Position numbers and translations under genes: made by a program
Assembly: GCA_949751835.1 (NCBI GenBank)
Contig: CATKHK010000105.1
Location: forward strand, 1-64,000
Source: Blepharisma japonicum
Taxonomy: Eukaryota; Ciliophora; Heterotrichea; Heterotrichida; Blepharismidae
Reading direction: 5' to 3'
DNA length: 64,000 nucleotides
In this document: positions 3,037 through 57,175 of the stretch, one piece after another
Layout of the letters: the number at the start of each line of letters is the position of its first letter
Numbering within the stretch: the first letter of the stretch is position 1
The notes under the pieces: model-generated
Databases searched by the model: none
What the model was told of the DNA's origin: nothing
What the model saw: the letters and a program-made list of their open reading frames with translations, nothing else

Positions 3037-6000
3037 TTAATTTTTATTACGTGATAACAAAGATGCATGCTGTGTGCTGTCTTCATTTCTCTGGATTATA
3101 TGAGAAGGCATCAATGAAGAAATTGTCTGAAGCCTGGCGAGTTTTTGCTTCTCCAAATATATATAAGGAATGTACAATAAAAAGTAAAGCCCAATGCAAA
3201 AAAAGCAATATCCAATTGTTATATAAACCATGGAATTCAACTCACTCTTTATTAAGTGGCTTGAGTCAGTATCAGCCTGATCTGTAACATTTTTAATCGA
3301 TTTTTGCAGTATGCTCATTCTGTTGTAATAAATCACTCTATCAGTCTGAGAGATTCCTCCAAATGAGTTAAAGAATGACTCAATCACCAGCACACTAGAC
3401 CCAGAATAAGATCCATAGCTAAAAAATAAATCTTCAGGATTTGCCTGTGACTCAAAAACATAATTTTTTAATCCATTAGAATACATTTCTCTGTATTTTT
3501 TGCTTGAAATATCTATATTTGTCTGGTCAAAGCTATTGATTTTAGCAATAATTTCATAATTCGGATCTCTAAAAGCATAATGAGAAGGCAGGATACTAGA
3601 TAAAGGATAAAATGATTTTGTGGTAACTTCTCTTGATCAAAGCGAAATTTCTGATATATACGCACTTCGGGTATACCAGCATTGCATAAAATCGTATCGC
3701 TTGATAACGTAATCTTGAAGGTAGGGATAAAGTCAATAGCTGATTAAAAAATAATAAAGAGAAGATATAGCTACAAATATAGCGCATAGCACAATCATCC
3801 TATATCCATTTTTATAATGAACTTTTACATTTTCTACTTTAAAATGATTCCCAAACTCGAATTCCATAGCAATATCATGGATTGCAGAAAGCCGGTTTAA
3901 GATGTTTTGATGAACTTCAAAATATGATGTTTGTGCCAAGGATTTCACAAAATTTAACAAGGCATCATAAGTTTTGACAAATTTTTTGGTTATAGGAATC
4001 AGTGCCATAAAGCAGAGGCTTACAATTATTACTCCAAGAATTGTTAGAGCGTCAATAATAGTGTTTGCTTCCTTTAAAGTGCTGATTTCGCAGTCTATGA
4101 AGCCTACAAAAGAGTTATTTAGTATTTGATAAATATTCCCATAAGTGTTGAGCATCAATTCAAATTCATAATACCCATAGTTTTGATTGTTTTCAATTAC
4201 TTCAATATATTTTTTCCCCTATATAAATATATACCGCTTCTCTAGACTTCGATATTGAATCATAAAGATTCAAGTACTCTGGGTCCCTTCCTGAATTTGG
4301 GTTTCAGTTTGGTATATCTTCATCTGCAATTTTTGATGATACTTTACAATTACTTCATCTTGAATAATCATTTATTAATTGATCTTGAATTAGGGTTAAA
4401 TCATCAAAGGTATCAAGAAACATTTCTTTATAATATGTGTAGTTGACTATTTTATATTTGATTCCTGCATCCATAGCTCGTGTTAAATAAGCGACTTTGC
4501 TTGACTCATACAAAATTTCAGCAATCCGCTTTATAACTCCAAGATTATTTGAATAACTTATTTGATTATAAATCAATGACATTATGATAATATTGGCTGC
4601 TATCACAATCAAAATCTAGATAAAAAATACCGATGCAAGAAGAGTCCACTTAAATAGCCTTAAAGCGCTTTCTGATTTAATTACCATATTATTTCCAAAT
4701 CCTATATAAACCTTACTTGACTGGCTCGCAGAGTAGCTACTCTGCGTTTGTGAGGTTTTTTCTAGCTCTTTTTGGCCTAATGTTTTAGTTTCATTAACTT
4801 CTTTATCATAAACTGCCATGCTTTCATACGAAATATTACTTATCGACAAATGTTTGGCTATTTTTTCTTCCTGTCACGATTTTGGATCCATTATAGACGG
4901 AGACAAAGTCGGTTCAGAAATAATTTGATAAGAAAGACAATTTTGAAAAAAATTAATTTGGTCATAATCCTCTCGTTTCTGCCACTGGGTCATTTCATTT
5001 CTTTCATGGATTAACAATAGAGCATGCATAACTGTCGATCCAGTTTTATGAATAATATGTGAAAATACAAGTGGATGCCCTTTAATTTTTACTGTTACAG
5101 GATCAAATGAGTCCATTATACTTATATCTATTTCTGGTATTAATTCAGAAATACGAAATCCTTTAAAGGAATTTATAGATTCATCTATATAATGCGTAAA
5201 AAGCTCACTGTGGCTTAAAATATATCCGTCCTCTGATAAAAGCGCAATTTGTCTGCTTTTGTGAATTTGCTTTAATGAGGTCATAAAATACAAATTCGAC
5301 TCCAACGCAACCAATCTTGTTTGGAATTTACACTCAACGAGATAACCTCGCTCAGTTTGAAGAAAAAATCCCATTGTCATGCTTATATCAGGATTGGTGC
5401 AGTTTTCTATGAATTTTTGCATATATGAATCATGATTTTGGTCATAAGGAGAAGGGATGTAGTTTACAATTTTTGTACCCATTAAATTAACTGTGGATTG
5501 CTTAAGGATCAGAGAAGCCTTGGGATTAGCAAATGTGATAACTCCAAAATTTTCTCTATTAGCAGATATTAATAAAAATCCATTAAATTCAGAAAATTGA
5601 AAAAATTTGTCTTCAGGCTGCTGATTTTCAAGTGCCATTAAATTTTCTTTTTTTGTTAGCATTTTTCCACCTGTTTCATAGTCTCCAAGCATATCTTGAA
5701 GCAGCGTCCCGTACAATTCGTGAGAATAAGCACTATAAGGAAATTTTGCTATTATGCTTGAATATTTTTTTTTTACCTTTATTAGCTTTTTTGATAGATT
5801 TTTCATAATAAAATGAAGTTTGTCTACTCTAGGATTTCTTGATGTAATTTCATCTCAGAAGCCTATTAAATAGTAACATAAAATCCTGTCGTCTTTTTTT
5901 ACTTTTTCTAGCTCTAATAAATAGATAAGGAGATTTATGTCTTCATAGAGGGCAGTATTAGAGTCCTCAAAGCATTTATATAAGAGCCACTCTTGGAAAT

Positions 6001-21178: not shown

Positions 21179-21217
21179 TTAATAATAATCTTTTAAATTT
21201 TTTAAGTAAAAATGACT

Positions 21218-21248
<31 letters not shown>

Positions 21249-21587
21249 ATAGCGCCTAAAGCTACCGCCTTAGACCACTCGGCCAAACAGTCAGTTCAGT
21301 CTTGTCACGTTTAGAAAAGCTTTTTAACGCTTTAAGCATTTATTTTATAATCTTCATTGGCTTTACTCCTCATTATCTTTAATATCTGCCTAATCCTCTT
21401 CTTCCTCTGCTATCTTTTCTTATAAACATATACTGAATTTATAATTTTTCTTTCAATCTTCTCCTCTTCCTCTATTTCTCCTCAATTATATCATTATTTC
21501 CATCAGAGCCAGTTTACAAAATTTTCTATTTCGCCTCTTTTCGCTTTAGTTTTCTATCTTCCATTTTGATAATATTTAAGCCACAGA
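21179..21587. other. spacer with tRNA and S18 promoter region
   Basis: Apart from the tRNA-Leu, the segment 21360-21560 is pyrimidine-rich on the plus strand (repeated CTTCCTC and TCTCCTC runs) just before the S18 start. This may be promoter composition. No second RNA gene is visible. Confidence 0.4.
21214..21292 (-). tRNA. tRNA-Leu(UAG)
   Basis: Read on the minus strand, the 79 nt fold as a class II tRNA. The 7-bp acceptor is GACTGTT/AGCAGTC. The D arm is GCC...GGC with GAGTGGTCTAA. The anticodon stem GTAGC/GCTAT holds the loop TTTAGGC (anticodon TAG, reading CUA and, by wobble, other CUN). There is a short variable arm, and the T arm is GTGGG-TTCAAAT-CCCAC. No intron and no encoded CCA. 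It lies in the spacer between aconitase and S18. Confidence 0.95.
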
Positions 21588-42783: not shown

Positions 42784-45288
42784 ATGGAAGAATCGCTTGA
42801 AGTTGAAAACCCGTTGATAACAAATCAAAAGAAAGCAGATCTTAAATTAGCAAGAAATCATCAAGTAAAATAAATTCAGAAAGCAAGCAAAGCAAGAAAC
42901 CTAAGGTCTTATAAAGTCACTGAAAAAAGTAAACTATGCCCTTGCTGCAGTTTACCAATTGTAATTTATATATAGGACGCCCCGTATTATTCACTTTGTT
43001 GTTCAATAGAAAAGCTTGGGGATTTAGGGATCGGCGTTCCTTTATATTTTTACTTTGTTTCACGAGTCATTCTTTGGCTTCTTTGGAGTTTTATTTTTGC
43101 AGGGGCTTATTGTGCTTATCAAGACTACTACGCTGGACACTCTGGAGACTGGGGTAAAGGCTCTGAAAGCTGATATATCGATGCCTCCTTAGGTGGCTTT
43201 GGAAAAAATGAAGACATCCCAGAAATCCAGGGAATCCTCCATGCTGCAAATAGCGTCATTTTAGTAGTTTTTTTCTTGTTCCTCAGAAAAAGTCTCACAA
43301 AAATGATCCAAAAAATTGATAAAAACCATATAACTCCTTCAGATTACACAGTTTGGGTTAAAAACCTCAGGAACAGTTATAATAGTCAAGATCTCAAAGC
43401 ATTTTTTGAAAAACAGACCCAATATTTCGGTTTTCCTACTACTGTGGAAAGTGTAAGTGTTGCTTATGATATTAATCAATATGTAAAAGATACTAGAGAT
43501 CATGCAAAACTAAAAGGGTTATTATTGTTTGTTCAGGACTATCAGAAAAAGCATCATGGGAATTATCCGAAAAAAGGTGGATTTTGTTGTAAATGTAAAA
43601 AATATGTAGCTTTTTATCCGCAAGAAGGAATAATAAAGCAGAAAATTGACAATTTGGAGAAAAGGATAAACAAGTTTGAGCAGAAAGCAAAAGAAAGTTA
43701 TAATCAGACACACTATGCCTTTGTAACGTTTACGAAAGAAGAAGACGCTAAACTGGTAGCTGACTATTGGGCAATTAATCCATCAACAAGGATTTTCTGC
43801 TGCTTATGCATGCTATGCTATGATGGCCCTTTCACTTTTAAAAATGTTAGGCTTCACGTAGAGCATGCTCCAGAGCCATCAGACATCATATGGGAAAATC
43901 TCAGTGCAACTTCTTGTCAAAAATACTTAAGGAGGCTAATTACTACTTTATGGACACTTGCATTACTTATAGGCTGCTTTATTTTAGTTTATATTACTAA
44001 GCAATATCAAAGAAACTACTATAAAGACTATGAAAACAAGCCAAAAGATGAAAGAACTTATCAAGATCTCTTACAAGTTCGTTTATACTCCTTTGGATTA
44101 TCTGCTTGCATTCTTATCATAAATCGTTTTCTTGCTATCGTTGTCAGAATCTTTTCCAGTACTGAAAAGCATATAACCTGAACCCATTATCATAGAGCAG
44201 TTACTAACAAATTAGTGACTGCAATGGTGCTTAATTCTGTAGCTATCCTTATTTGGGTGAATTCAGCTAAAATAGATGACTGGTTTTTGCCATATGGCTT
44301 AGTCAATGATGTTTTATTTTTATTAATAGTCAGCGGGATTTCGTCCCCATTGACATATATTTTTTCTCCTTTGTATCTTTATAAAGTACATAAAAGACGA
44401 CAAGTAAAAAAACTTGCACGAAAAGGCATTATTGGGATAACTCAGATCCAGGCTAATAAATTGTGGGAAAACCCTGAAGTGGACATGGCTCAGCGGTATG
44501 CGAATATTTTGGTGACATTAATAATCTGCTTTATTTTTGCTCCATTATTCCCTCTTTGTTTTCTTATCGGTTTTATATCAGTTTTCTTGCAATACTGGAC
44601 TGACAAACTTATGCTGCTTCGTCGGCATTCGCGACCACGCAACTTCGGCAAAGGAATGTCTGACAACATGCTCAAATGGATCCCTCTCTTTATTTTGGCT
44701 TACTCAGTAACCTTTATATAGGCCTCAAACTGCATATTTTTATTTTTTTTAAAATCTGAAGACTATCACAACATTTTGATCCCAATCGCCGCCTTTTTAT
44801 TAGTCGCCTTATTTTTTGTTTCTCCTATAAGGTTTTTATGTGGAATTAAAGGAAAAATAAGAAGAAAAAATGAAGGCATTAACGTAGACGAAAGAAATGA
44901 GTATGAAGAGCATGCTGTGAATTTTAATGAAGATTATATGAGAAATAACCCACTATTAGCGAAAGAAGGCTGGAAAGACTGGTTAAAATTGGTAGAACAT
45001 AGAAAAGGAACAGCAGAAAAGAGGAAAATGGAGACAAGATTTTCGAATGTGATGAGTGCTGCTAATAATCCGAGAAATTATGCGTATCATATGGCGGATT
45101 TGGAAAGTGGACAGTATAGGACGATTGCAGAAAATCCGTTTTCAAGTGTGATGGGTGGAAGTGTAATTAATCCAGTGGCAGTAAATCCGTTTAGCGATGC
45201 ACCAATGGAAGATGAGTATAGTGAAGAAAGAAATATTTTAGAAAACCCAGGGAATTATTATCCATATCGTCAAAATGAGTTTAACTAA
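42784..45288 (+). CDS. OSCA/TMEM63-like membrane protein, 819 aa (copy 1)
   Basis: Assembled across three 15-nt introns and TGA=Trp. The N-terminus is cytosolic with a Cys cluster (KLCPCCSLPI). Two early TM segments follow, then a cytosolic domain with an RNA-recognition-like fold (DYTVWVKNL, AFVTFTKEEDAKLV) ending in HAPEPSDIIWENLS. That last motif is characteristic of the OSCA/TMEM63/CSC1 (DUF221) family. At least six more TM segments follow (LTYIFSPLYLYKV, FIFAPLFPLCFLIGFISVFL). Family members are mechanically or osmotically gated cation channels. I infer the same general role. The C-terminal about 150 residues are cytosolic, hydrophilic and Asn-rich. A tandem paralogue follows 170 nt downstream. 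Confidence 0.75.
42865..42879 (+). other. 15-nt intron 1 (channel copy 1)
   Basis: GTAAAATAAATTCAG, with an in-frame TAA when retained. The same position (after ...HQ, before KASKAR) carries an intron in the paralogue. A at position 10. Confidence 0.9.
42961..42975 (+). other. 15-nt intron 2 (channel copy 1)
   Basis: GTAATTTATATATAG, between LPI and DAPYY. Position conserved in the paralogue. A at position 10. Confidence 0.92.
44707..44721 (+). other. 15-nt intron 3 (channel copy 1)
   Basis: GTAACCTTTATATAG, after FILAYS. The paralogue has an intron at the equivalent place. A at position 10. Confidence 0.92.
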
Positions 45289-52281: not shown

Positions 52282-53679
52282 ATGGCTGCCACGATTATGA
52301 AATATTTTGTAACCCTCTGGCTGTTCAATTGTTTAGCATTAGCTACTATTGAATTAAACAATTTTTATTATTATACCCAAACTACCCAATGAAACAATTT
52401 GAATGTTGATTTTAAAATAACCAACCAAAAATATATTCGGATTTGGGTTGAAATATTAGATAAACCCAAAGACTCTTTACCACTTCTTGCACTTAGTAAT
52501 ACCGTGCCTCATTTTGGCGCGAACTCCACTGATGTCCAAGCTGCTTATATTGACTATGAAGGCTGATTTTCAAATCTCAATTATCATTCGATAATATTGG
52601 AGAATTTTGGAACCCTTCCTAGTATTATCAGTGTCGGGAATTACGATTATAAAGAAGGTGCTATTCAGTACAAGCTTAGGGTCGATACAAGCGATAGCAT
52701 CCTTTGTCCACAAGACTGTAATAATAACGGGTTCTGCCAAGCCCTAAATCAATGCTCCTGCAATCCTGGCTACATAAAACCAACTTGCGGAATTCCCGCT
52801 GTTGAAATTTTAACTTCAAAAACTGATATAAAAAACCCTATAAATGGCTTCACCTATGGATATATAAGTCTAGCAAACAGTATTTTTTATATAGTATCCT
52901 CAAACTCGATCGTTTTAAGCGTAAACTGGGATGGCCCATACTGTAGATTACTATTAAACTATGATAGATCAGGGTAACTTTTATATAGGAATTTTTCCCT
53001 TCCTTCTTCCCATCATTTTTATTCATCGATATTTTTAAATGGTGTAAAGAATCCGACGACCACTACAATCGATATCAGCAATATGAACGATTTTCTATAT
53101 GTTGCAACATTTCCGTTGGATTCTTATAAGACTCCAGCTTCAAATTATACTATTTGGTACAAAGAAAAATCTTCAGAAGACGCAAGTGTATTTATTTTGA
53201 TATATATTATAATAAGTTGTGTAGGAGTGATCACTGTATTATTCGGGCTATTTTTAATCCTTAAAAAGAAATGCAAGGAGCACCATCTTGTTAAGGTTAC
53301 TGAAGAATCCCCTGGACTGTCTTCTTCACTTATTAATAAGAAATACCCAGCTTTTAGATTTTATGAGCTGAAATCTAAAGAAAAGGTAGAAGTTACGTGC
53401 GCTATCTGTTTTGATGCATTTAATCCGACTTCTTGGGTTCGGAAACTCCATTGCTCTCATTTGTTTCATTCTACTTGCATTGAGGAATGGTTTAAAGCTA
53501 ATACAGTAAGCGATATATAGACATGCTGCTTATGCAAAAGAGATTGCTCTGCACTAAATATGATTGTTCTAAGTAATTTTGGAGAGGATGAGAATCTTTT
53601 TAATAAAGTTAATCGGAGTGAGATAAATACAGCGACGAATATTACTGAAACTTTTGATGACTCTATAGAGCAAGTTTAA
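52282..53679 (+). CDS. EGF-like / transmembrane / RING-H2 protein (putative E3 ubiquitin ligase), 455 aa
   Basis: A paralogue of the gene at 1481. Signal peptide (MKYFVTLWLFNCLALA after MAATI), beta-rich ectodomain (AAYIDYEGWF, parallel to ASYVDYDGWY in copy 1), EGF-like module (CPQDCNNNGFCQALNQCSC), second beta-rich region, TM helix (FILIYIIISCVGVITVLFGL) and RING-H2 (CAICFDAF...CSHLFHSTC...CCLCKRD). The last Cys pair of the RING lies after the second intron; unspliced, the protein stops inside the RING. Introns: 52974-52988 and 53506-53520. Neither matches the 16-nt intron of copy 1. Several Trp are TGA. Confidence 0.82.
52974..52988 (+). other. 15-nt intron 1 (EGF-RING gene 2)
   Basis: GTAACTTTTATATAG, splitting a Gly codon (GG|G). 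Retention gives TAA. A at position 10. Confidence 0.92.
53506..53520 (+). other. 15-nt intron 2 (EGF-RING gene 2)
   Basis: GTAAGCGATATATAG, inside the RING domain. Splicing gives KANTTCCLCKRD, completing the C3H2C3 set. A at position 10. Confidence 0.93.
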
Positions 53680-54517: not shown

Positions 54518-57175
54518 ATGGATTTATTCAAAAAACCAAACTTCGGTCCTCCCCCTCCAGGCTACGTCCCTGGCATAGGCCGTGGAATCGTCCCCATATT
54601 TACCCGCTCTGACATAGGTGATGCTGCCTCAGCAAATTCCAACATAAAGTATTTTTCATATAGCCCTACCAAAGGAACTCGAGGTCACGAGCATGATCGA
54701 GGTGACTACTCTGACACTTTATTCGACAAATGGTCAGGTTTTGATGACAAACCATTTGTTCAAGAAACCTATGATGAAGAAGACAAAGAAGCTGATAGAG
54801 CTTACAAATATGTTGATGACTATATGGACACTCGCAGAAAACGTCAACGAGAAACCACTGCAAAAGAAATTTTAGCCACGCACAAGCGAAAAGTTCCTGC
54901 TGAAATTTTTGCTGACTTGAAGCCAGATCTCTCTACAATTTCCAATGGTAAGTGTAATATTCATATAGAAGAGTGATTGAATTTGCCTGAAGCAAAATCT
55001 CATATGAAAACTAAAAAGAAAAAAGACCATCACATACCGATTTCAGATAGAGTTATACAAGAGTCTTATCAGGAGAGCCAGATATCCTCAGGAGTGGTTA
55101 CAACTCTAAATGAAGCGAAAGGACTTGTAATTTCGTCACAAATAAAAAAAGTGAATACAGAAAGTATAGTCCCATCTGTTGATCCAAAAGGATATATAAC
55201 ACAAATGGAATCAATGAAACCATTTTCTATTGATGAGGTTGAAGATTTAAAAAAAATCAGGACTATAGTTAAATCATTGATTACTACAAACCCACATCAG
55301 CCTCATGGGTGACTTTCTGCAAGCAGAATTGAGGAAAAAGATGGAAATATTGCAGCTGCACGAAAACTTCTGAGAGAAGGATGCGAGCAATGCCCGGACT
55401 CCGAAGATCTGTGAATTGAGTCAGCAAGACTTGAAAATAACGAAAATGCTAAAAAAATCCTTGCAAAAGCAGCTGCATTTTTGCCTAAATCAGTAAAAAT
55501 CTGGCTGACGGCGAGTGAAAAAGAGACAAATAATGAAAATAAAATTAGGGTATTGAAAAAAGGGTTGGAATTAAATCCAGATTCTGTGAGGCTGTGGAAA
55601 GAAATTGTATCTTTATGTGATGAGCAGCAAGCTAAGGTTTATTTACGAAGGGCGTCTCAGTGTATTCCTCATAATTTAGAGCTGTGGCTTGCATTTGCAA
55701 AAATTGAGAGCTATAAAAATGCTAGAGCAATTTTAAATGAAGCGAGAAAAAAAATGCCTTATGAACCACTTATATGGATAAATGCAGCAAAATTAGAAGA
55801 AGCTGAAGGGAATACCGACAATATACAAATTTTAATTGACAGAGGCATCAAAACTCTTTCTAAAAGTGGAGTCGAAATAGTCAGAAAATCTTGGCTTCAA
55901 GAAGCAATAAATGCTGAACAATCTGGAAGCTTTTTAACTGCAAAAGCAATCATTAAATCTACTATGAATGTAGGATTATCAGAAGACCAAAGAATTTTTG
56001 TGTGGATTGAAGAAATTGATATGATTTATAAAGAAAATTGTTTCACGTCAGTAAGATGTCTTATTGATGAAGCCTTAAAATATTGCCCAAGAGAAAAAAA
56101 GCTATGGAAAATTGCTATAAAATTAGAAAAGCAGCTGAGTGATCAAGAAAGACTATGAAAATTATTGAATTCTGGATGCAGAGCATGCTCAAGCTCTAAA
56201 AAACTGTGAAAAGATGCTTTATCGTTTGCAATTGTCCATTGTCCTGCAGAATTTACAGACTTAGCAATGGAAGCGCTTAAAATTCACGAAAATTCTGAAG
56301 ACTTGTATAGATTGATAGTAAGTCAAGAAATTTCACGAGGCAGGTTTTCTGAAGCACAAGACTTTTTAGCTATTGGAATGGCTAAATGTGAAGGTTGGGC
56401 TCTATGAAAAGAAGCCATAAAATTGCATATAGGCCTTGCAAATAATGAAAAAGCTATAGAAATTATCAATCAAGCTATTGAAAAATTCCCATCAATCCCT
56501 TCATTTTATATAGCTGGTGCAAAATTGCTTAAAGATACTAATAAAGACCTATCATTTGCATTGCTACAAAAAGGCCAAGAATTAATTCCTAATAATGGGA
56601 AACTATGAATTGAAGCAAGCAAAATCGAAGAGGAAAAAGGAAACGATATGAGGGCAAGATATTTTCTTGAAAAAGGAAGAAAATTAAGCAAAGATGCGTC
56701 AGTTTGGATTTATTCTGTAAATTTTGAAAATGAAAAAGGAAATTCAAAGGCAGCATCGTTTTTGTTGAGCCAAGGACTACAGGAGTTTTTAAAAGATGGG
56801 AAGCTGTGGTCTCTGGCTATTGAAATGGCAAATATTAAAGAAAGAAAAGCTAAAATATTGCAAGCTTTAGAGAGCTGTGGGGAATCCCCTTATCTTTTGT
56901 TAGCTATTGCAAGAACGTTTTTAAGTGATCAGAAGTATGAGAAAGCTAGAATTTGGTTCGAAAAAGCATTAAAAGAAGGAAGCTGGCTTGGGGATATATG
57001 GATTTTTTATTATTCAATGGAAGTGAAATTGGAGCAAAAATTGAATTTGGAAAATATTTTAGCGAAAAGCGAAAATTGTGAAATATTGAAGGGAGAGCTT
57101 TGGAGAAAGACCAAAAAAATAATGCCATTAAATGCAAAAAATAGTGAAATAATTAAAGCTAGCACTATTAGGTAA
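54518..57175 (+). CDS. pre-mRNA-splicing factor Prp6 (PRPF6), U5 / tri-snRNP, 878 or 885 aa
   Basis: A HAT-repeat protein bridging U5 and U4/U6 in the tri-snRNP. N-terminal PRP1 region: FGPPPPGYVPGIGRG, DKWSGFDDKP and ARDYMD-like YVDDYMDTRR. Then EEWLNLPEA and a C-terminal array of HAT repeats (WLSASRIEEKDGN, WIESARLENN, WLAFAKIESYKNAR, WIEASKIEEEKGN). Many HAT tryptophans are TGA. At 54948-54968, 21 nt without a stop interrupt the conserved TI(S/T).EEWL motif. Spliced out, the motif is perfect (ISNEEWLNLPEA, 878 aa). Retained, seven residues replace part of it (885 aa). Length is near the usual 900-940. Confidence 0.92.
54948..54968 (+). other. candidate 21-nt intron in the Prp6 gene, with a nested 15-nt intron-like sequence
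   Basis: GT...AG with an A 6 nt from the 3' end, like the other introns. Its last 15 nt (54954-54968, GTAATATTCATATAG) alone match the 15-nt consensus, including A10. Removing 21 nt restores EEWLNLPE. Removing only 15 nt creates an immediate TAA. Retention keeps the frame. Confidence 0.55.

What the first reader, a model, noticed from the sequence alone, without database searches (positions are those of the whole stretch)
54940..54980. Prp6 gene carries a 21-nt, stop-free intron candidate with a nested 15-nt intron: three splice outcomes in a splicing-factor gene
Sequence: GT(AAGT)GT...TATAG offers two 5' splice sites (54948, 54954) sharing one 3' site. Using the outer site (21 nt) restores the conserved Prp6 motif EEWLNLPE exactly. 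Using the inner site (15 nt, the length and A10 typical of this genome) gives an immediate TAA. Retention adds seven residues in frame. Knowledge: splicing factors often regulate their own mRNAs by alternative or unproductive splicing. Inference: a minimal switch for autoregulation could fit in 21 nt. A 21-nt intron would also be unusual beside the 15-16 nt norm.
Basis: partly seen in the sequence, partly recalled or inferred. Interest (0 to 1): 0.78.

Follow-up and report, generated by a model that had tools for sequence, protein, structure and literature searches.

The report
Oversized intron with two donors
A splicing-factor gene in a ciliate whose introns are nearly all 15-16 bases long probably carries a 21-base intron with a second start site that would cut the protein short; the sequence supports the intron, but nothing yet shows that the cell uses it as a switch.

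Summary
The described sequence is real: GTAAGTGTAATATTCATATAG (54948-54968) lies in frame in the only Prp6-type gene found in a Blepharisma-like ciliate genome (UGA=Trp). Retention adds seven residues; the outer donor removes 21 nt; the inner donor (54954) removes 15 nt and creates TAA.

For an intron: human and yeast Prp6 align with an exact seven-residue gap here; removal raises the PRP1_N score 12.7 bits, peaking at this placement; a 15-mer this intron-like is expected 0.125 times per 264 kb of coding sequence. Stop-free introns occur elsewhere here; a DYRK-like kinase gives an independent case.

Against: 21 nt lies outside the 15/16-nt norm, no other credible 21-nt intron appeared in 344 kb, and no RNA reads were available.

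The outer donor pairs with canonical U1 more strongly than 37 other intron candidates, which may let it beat the nested 15-nt donor.

Best reading: a 21-nt intron, probably born by a 6-nt donor duplication, with the inner donor as a nonsense by-product. The autoregulatory switch is untested. Correction: EEWLNLPE is intact in the retained form too; removal restores the spacing.

The parts
54518..57175 (+). Prp6 (PRPF6) gene, 885 codons plus stop if both intron candidates are retained; 7 in-frame TGA read as Trp
   Evidence: human Prp6 E=9.7e-149 and yeast Prp6 E=3.8e-69; PF06424 102.1 bits; only PF06424 match found in the genome
54948..54968 (+). candidate 21-nt intron GTAAGTGTAATATTCATATAG, phase 1, stop-free when retained
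   Evidence: exact 7-residue gap in human and yeast Prp6; PF06424 106.6 to 119.3 bits on removal, peak of a shift scan
54948..54953 (+). outer donor GTAAGT, preceded by G at 54947; 7 contiguous Watson-Crick pairs with canonical U1, -8.6 kcal/mol
   Evidence: canonical U1 end ACUUACCUGG in L033
54954..54968 (+). nested 15-nt alternative intron GTAATATTCATATAG, sharing the acceptor; excision creates TAA
   Evidence: 15.0 bits, 6 of 26 training candidates score lower
54963..54963 (+). predicted branch-point A (position 10 of the 15-mer, 16 of the 21-mer)
   Evidence: A10 was required by the search pattern, so the matrix is no independent proof; A10 in 8005 introns (90.90%) of Stentor (PMC9505925)
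54649..54663 (+). second stop-free 15-nt intron candidate of the Prp6 gene, GTATTTTTCATATAG, phase 2
   Evidence: 14.9 bits; PF06424 +2.8 bits on removal (106.6 to 109.4, 119.3 to 122.1); variable region, so weak

Best explanation
54948-54968 is a spliceosomal intron of 21 nt. Canonical U1 selects the outer donor ATG|GTAAGT through seven contiguous pairs; the branch A is 54963 and the acceptor TATAG is shared. Joining G to AA gives ...SNEEWLNLPE..., the productive Prp6 mRNA. The nested donor T|GTAATA, at the genome's standard 15-nt distance, is used at some level and yields ...SNGK-stop, an unproductive mRNA. It most likely arose when six bases at the donor of a standard 15-nt intron were duplicated (GTAAGT beside GTAATA), after which only the outer donor keeps the frame. 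Shown: sequence, frames, homology gap, motif rarity, U1 pairing. Inferred: actual splicing, isoform ratio, the duplication, decay of the TAA form.
For: Human and yeast Prp6 both align with a 7-residue gap at this point. PF06424 rises from 106.6 to 119.3 bits on removal; of eight other 7-residue deletions placed -21 to +7 residues away none reaches this (97.8-117.8). Intron-like 15-mers of this score are expected 0.125 times per 264 kb of coding sequence. Stop-free phase-1 introns appear to exist here: removing one in a DYRK-like kinase adds 11.0 bits to Pkinase and closes an exact 5-residue gap against DYRK2 and DYRK3. The outer donor pairs with U1 at -8.6 kcal/mol; 0 of 37 other intron candidates are as strong, although 2 of 37 also reach 7 pairs in all, not contiguous.
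Against: No RNA evidence. 21 nt is outside the published heterotrich range (about 95% 15 bp and the rest 16 bp, PMC11441545 passages). In 344 kb, 27 candidates of 15 nt and 4 of 16 nt but no credible one of 21 nt were found; GTA..A..TAG 21-mers in coding sequence show no excess (6 observed, 5.6 simulated). With both candidates retained the whole gene is one open frame, so the unspliced mRNA could be translated. Deletions shifted by 1-3 residues score within 1.5-3.4 bits on the N side and 2.6 bits at +1, so the protein comparison alone fixes the site only roughly. Only two Prp6 species were available for the gap test. The Prp6-type 21/15 double donor is not enriched in the genome: 2 sites against 6 for the reversed pattern.
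Confidence: 0.74

Rival explanations
1. The 21 nt are coding: a lineage-specific seven-residue insert GKCNIHI in a flexible part of the N-terminal domain, never or rarely removed; the splice-like ends are chance or the remains of a lost intron.
For: Open in frame; 21 nt is not an intron length seen in excess in this genome; EEWLNLPE is intact either way.
Against: Chance of so intron-like a 15-mer is low (0.125 per 264 kb); the gap position coincides with a GT..AG span in human and yeast Prp6 and in the Pfam profile.
Confidence: 0.14
2. Autoregulatory switch, the first reader's idea: the ratio of 21-nt excision, 15-nt excision and retention responds to Prp6 or spliceosome activity and sets Prp6 level through nonsense-mediated decay.
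For: All three outcomes are encoded; two UPF1-type loci are present, so decay is plausible; splicing-factor autoregulation is described in papers whose titles and abstract starts were listed.
Against: No isoform or conservation data. Of 150 papers that one search found, the 15 listed have no occurrence of the word Prp6. A simple duplication explains the structure.
Confidence: 0.08
3. The inner 15-nt intron is the one mainly spliced, so most Prp6 mRNA is nonsense and the protein made comes from retained or 21-nt-spliced mRNA.
For: 15 nt is the standard length and the inner 15-mer scores within the range of the training candidates.
Against: Only one PF06424 gene was found, its product is essential in other organisms (recalled), and its frame is otherwise intact; the inner donor has only 4 pairs with canonical U1 against 7 for the outer.
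Confidence: 0.04

Closest known systems
Tandem alternative 5' splice sites (GYNGYN and related donors; PMC1779574, listing and start of abstract only)
   Same: Two donors a few bases apart share one acceptor.
   Different: Here the spacing is 6 nt, the intron is 21 versus 15 nt, and the inner choice makes a stop codon although both excisions are multiples of three.
Tiny heterotrich introns (Stentor PMC9505925, parts 1-2 of 6 read; Blepharisma PMC9942806, passages)
   Same: GT-AG, A-T rich, A ten bases into the nested 15-mer, TAG end.
   Different: Total length 21 nt instead of 15 or 16. The Blepharisma text says predominantly 15 and 16 bp; its supplement, which may list exceptions, was not seen.
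Karyorelict (Loxodes) introns, mode 17 bp, 93% at most 25 bp (PMC11441545, passages)
   Same: 21 nt falls inside that range in the sister class.
   Different: Different class; here an isolated case in a genome with a tight 15/16 norm.
Stwintrons (nested introns; titles and abstract starts listed)
   Same: One intron-like span lies inside another.
   Different: No splice element is interrupted and no two-step removal is needed; the two share an acceptor and exclude each other.

Membership tests
Spliceosomal GT-AG intron of this genome | GTA start, A six bases from the end, TAG end | tested here: met
Spliceosomal GT-AG intron of this genome | removal restores alignment to orthologues | tested here: met
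Spliceosomal GT-AG intron of this genome | length 15 or 16 nt | tested here: not met
   outer is 21 nt; only the nested span is 15 nt
Spliceosomal GT-AG intron of this genome | removed from mRNA | not testable with these tools
   no RNA reads available
Tandem alternative 5' splice site | two plausible donors, one acceptor | tested here: met
   sequence only
Tandem alternative 5' splice site | both donors used in cells | not testable with these tools
   no RNA reads
Autoregulatory unproductive splicing | one outcome carries a premature stop | tested here: met
   TAA after 15-nt excision
Autoregulatory unproductive splicing | nonsense-mediated decay machinery | tested here: inconclusive
   two UPF1_Zn_bind loci, 206.3 and 133.8 bits; activity not tested
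Autoregulatory unproductive splicing | outcome responds to the gene's own product | not testable with these tools
   needs perturbation with RNA-seq
Autoregulatory unproductive splicing | conserved arrangement in relatives | not tested
Prp6/PRPF6 | PRP1_N domain plus HAT/TPR repeats, best match to Prp6 | tested here: met

The most novel reading that the evidence does not exclude
The two donors are read by two different U1 RNAs. The outer fits canonical U1 (7 contiguous pairs); the inner fits a second U1-like gene whose 5' end reads AAUUACAAU (6 contiguous pairs, 7 of 9, -4.3 kcal/mol; the outer donor also makes 7 of 9 with it, but only 4 contiguous and -2.0). The ratio of the two U1s would then set productive against nonsense Prp6, while retention still gives full-length Prp6 with a small insert, a splicing-independent fallback for a factor that splicing needs.
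Probability: 0.04. Interest if true: 0.85.

Novelty: new variant of a known kind. Interest (0 to 1): 0.43.

Why it matters
If spliced, it shows that a spliceosome tuned to 15-16 nt can remove 21 nt, and that strong U1 pairing may override the length norm at a competing donor: a natural test of what measures intron length where introns are shortest. It also warns that gene finders limited to 15-16 nt, or to introns that carry a stop, will miss or misread such sites. If regulated, it would be a very compact splicing switch in a core spliceosome gene.

Tried and rejected
Codon-only scoring of intron candidates was too weak; a 3-periodic Markov model replaced it. With loose GT..AG ends, (264 kb) gave 6 raw 21-nt hits against 9, 3, 8 and 4 for four control end pairs: no signal, and these six were not inspected singly. 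With GTA..A..TAG ends two raw 21-nt hits remained and were rejected on inspection: one overlaps a phase-0 15-nt candidate on the minus strand of C1, the other looks non-coding (C2 minus strand). One 15-nt row inside the Prp6 frame (56935 in window coordinates) was dropped as a false positive before the counts. A second 21/15 double-donor span in the window (43589-43609, GTAAATGTAAAAAATATGTAG) scores only 11.9 bits, had no homology test and was set aside. The only other GTAAGTGTA..A..TAG site in the genome (C19:398157-398177) looks intergenic; 2 sites against 6 for the reversed pattern, so no enriched class of such sites. The Sec24 site (C1, 19168) gave no verdict: no change in the Pfam domains and an ambiguous alignment. 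Two genome-wide totals were not used as evidence: GTAAGT..A..TAG 37 against 119 for the reversed pattern (the reversed pattern has other word frequencies), and GTAAN{3,23}TTATATAG 821 against 796 (only the lengths of the 100 listed rows are informative). Structure prediction was not run; it would not separate the isoforms. Stwintron and recursive splicing were rejected: after the inner excision only 9 nt would remain between GT and AG.

Full report
What is there. The window lies in a 45.19-Mb, 224-contig genome with no relatives held. TGA is read as tryptophan: in 264 kb, frames of at least 300 codons number 84 when only TAA and TAG stop, against 65 (TAA, TGA), 71 (TAG, TGA) and 60 (all three), and frames of at least 400 codons hold 170 TGA beside 331 TGG. 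Together with 15-nt introns this fits a heterotrich like Blepharisma (PMC9942806, passages); no call names the species. The gene at 54518-57175 encodes Prp6: human PRPF6 E=9.7e-149, yeast Prp6 E=3.8e-69, PF06424 102.1 bits. It is the only PF06424 match found in the genome, and that six-frame match ends at 54946, just before the G (54947) that precedes the donor.

The three outcomes are as described: retained +GKCNIHI, minus 21 nt in frame, minus 15 nt stop. One correction: EEWLNLPE is encoded in both the retained and the 21-nt-spliced form. What removal restores is the distance from FADLK to EEW. Human and yeast Prp6 both align with a seven-residue gap here. On a 185-residue N-terminal piece PF06424 scores 106.6 bits retained and 119.3 bits after removal. 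Eight other 7-residue deletions, placed -21, -14, -7, -3, -1, +1, +3 and +7 residues away, score 98.7, 97.8, 107.7, 115.9, 117.8, 116.7, 106.3 and 98.6 (of the ten variants printed, the unshifted one is that and +14 was not tested). The peak is at the GT-AG placement, though near neighbours are close, so the protein alone fixes the site only roughly; the GT-AG ends fix it exactly.

How introns look in this genome. I held 344 kb: the window, 100 kb each of C1 and C2, 80 kb of C3. Spans whose removal restores an open, coding-like frame were counted by length. For GTA..A..TAG with 20 and 30 codons of flank, 24 of 36 hits are 15 nt and 2 are 16 nt; five control motifs give 1, 0, 0, 0 and 4 at 15 nt. 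Pooling three settings and dropping one false row inside Prp6 leaves 27 of 15 nt (phase 0: 21; phase 2: 6; two pairs look like copies in duplicated genes) and 4 of 16 nt. Two raw 21-nt hits were rejected on inspection. Genome-wide, GTAAN{3,23}TTATATAG has 821 matches and its reversed control 796, so the total says nothing; but of the 100 rows listed (C1-C5), 47 are 15 nt, 7 are 16 nt and 2 are 21 nt, other lengths 1-10 each, the 10 at 34 nt including a six-member repeated block. So 21 nt is not a detectable class here. This agrees with the literature: 15 bp about 95%, the rest 16 (PMC11441545, passages), and 8173 of 8806 at 15 nt, the rest 16, in Stentor (PMC9505925, section 2.1). The Blepharisma paper says predominantly 15 and 16 bp; its supplement was not seen.

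Stop-free introns. The frame method cannot see a phase-1 intron without a stop. A position matrix from 26 unique 15-nt candidates was therefore run over 264,237 nt of open frames of at least 200 codons, some of which may be spurious frames. Six spans reach the inner Prp6 score of 15.0 bits, Prp6 itself included by construction; eight simulations of the same size average 0.125. All six are phase 1, where the consensus yields no in-frame stop. One, in a DYRK-like kinase (C2:41969-41983, minus strand), can be tested: removal lifts Pkinase from 110.8 to 121.8 bits, and DYRK2 and DYRK3 align with an exact 5-residue gap (the three alignments shown). A Sec24 site gave no verdict; the other three were not tested by homology. 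So stop-free introns look like an ordinary minority, and this property of the Prp6 site needs no special purpose.

A second candidate in the same gene, 54649-54663 (GTATTTTTCATATAG, phase 2, stop-free), scores 14.9 bits. Removal adds 2.8 bits to PF06424 in either background. It lies in a variable linker, so I call it likely but weak.

How it could work. Canonical U1 of this genome (L033, 87.3 bits) begins ACUUACCUGG. Against it the outer donor ATG|GTAAGT makes seven contiguous pairs, -8.6 kcal/mol; none of 37 other candidates (31 frame-restoring, 6 stop-free, one of these in Prp6) is as strong, though two also reach seven pairs in all. The inner donor AGT|GTAATA makes four. The simplest model is that strong U1 pairing wins for the outer donor despite the odd length. 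GTAAGT and GTAATA share their first four bases, which suggests a six-base duplication at the donor of a standard 15-nt intron (inference). The inner product ends after SNGK; two UPF1-type loci make its decay plausible but do not show it.

Regulation. Nothing here tests it. One search found 150 papers holding at least two of Prp6, unproductive splicing and autoregulation; the 15 listed had no occurrence of Prp6. In Paramecium bursaria, alternative 3' sites mostly abolish protein production and some retained introns are in frame (PMC12862383, passages), so such outcomes can be regulated in ciliates; the Stentor paper reports no SR proteins (PMC9505925). I give the switch 8%.

A side finding bears on the novel case. 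A second U1-like locus (L034, 61.8 bits, below the 69.5 gathering score) shares upstream blocks with L033 but begins AAUUACAAU and also differs in the first stem-loop. Of 1024 possible U1 ends with a UUAC core, this one ranks 34th in fit to the 37 donors and the canonical one 421st; A/T richness of the donors explains part of this, and no composition control was run. The inner Prp6 donor makes 7 of 9 pairs with it, 6 contiguous, -4.3 kcal/mol; the outer also makes 7 of 9, but 4 contiguous, -2.0. It may be a variant U1 or a decaying copy. Two searches (11 papers, 10 listed of 4,232) showed no title or opening abstract about such a variant in ciliates; that is a limited search.

Verdict. Observation confirmed; intron probable (0.74); switch untested. 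It is ordinary in being stop-free and unusual in length and in its double donor.

Noticed in passing
L034 (G000:C17:419159-419319, U1-like start near L034 position 1500): Second U1-like snRNA locus with an altered 5' end (AAUUACAAU in place of ACUUACCUG), complementary to AUU|GUAAUU donors, with upstream blocks shared with the canonical U1 locus; a variant U1 or a decaying copy.
   Followed up: partly
54649-54663: Second stop-free 15-nt intron candidate in the Prp6 gene, 14.9 bits.
   Followed up: partly
L017 1969-1983, minus strand (G000:C2:41969-41983): Stop-free phase-1 15-nt intron candidate in a DYRK-like kinase, supported by an exact 5-residue gap against DYRK2 and DYRK3.
   Followed up: yes
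43589-43609: Another 21/15 double-donor span in phase 1, in a gene not searched against any family library; may simply be coding.
   Followed up: partly
52880-52894 (+) and 4702-4716 (-): Two further high-scoring stop-free 15-nt intron candidates, 18.3 and 18.1 bits.
   Followed up: no
21213-21292 (-): tRNA gene, 58.6 bits against RF00005.
   Followed up: no
G000:C32:96935-97393 and C54:277779-278231: Two UPF1_Zn_bind matches, 206.3 and 133.8 bits, suggesting two UPF1-type genes.
   Followed up: no
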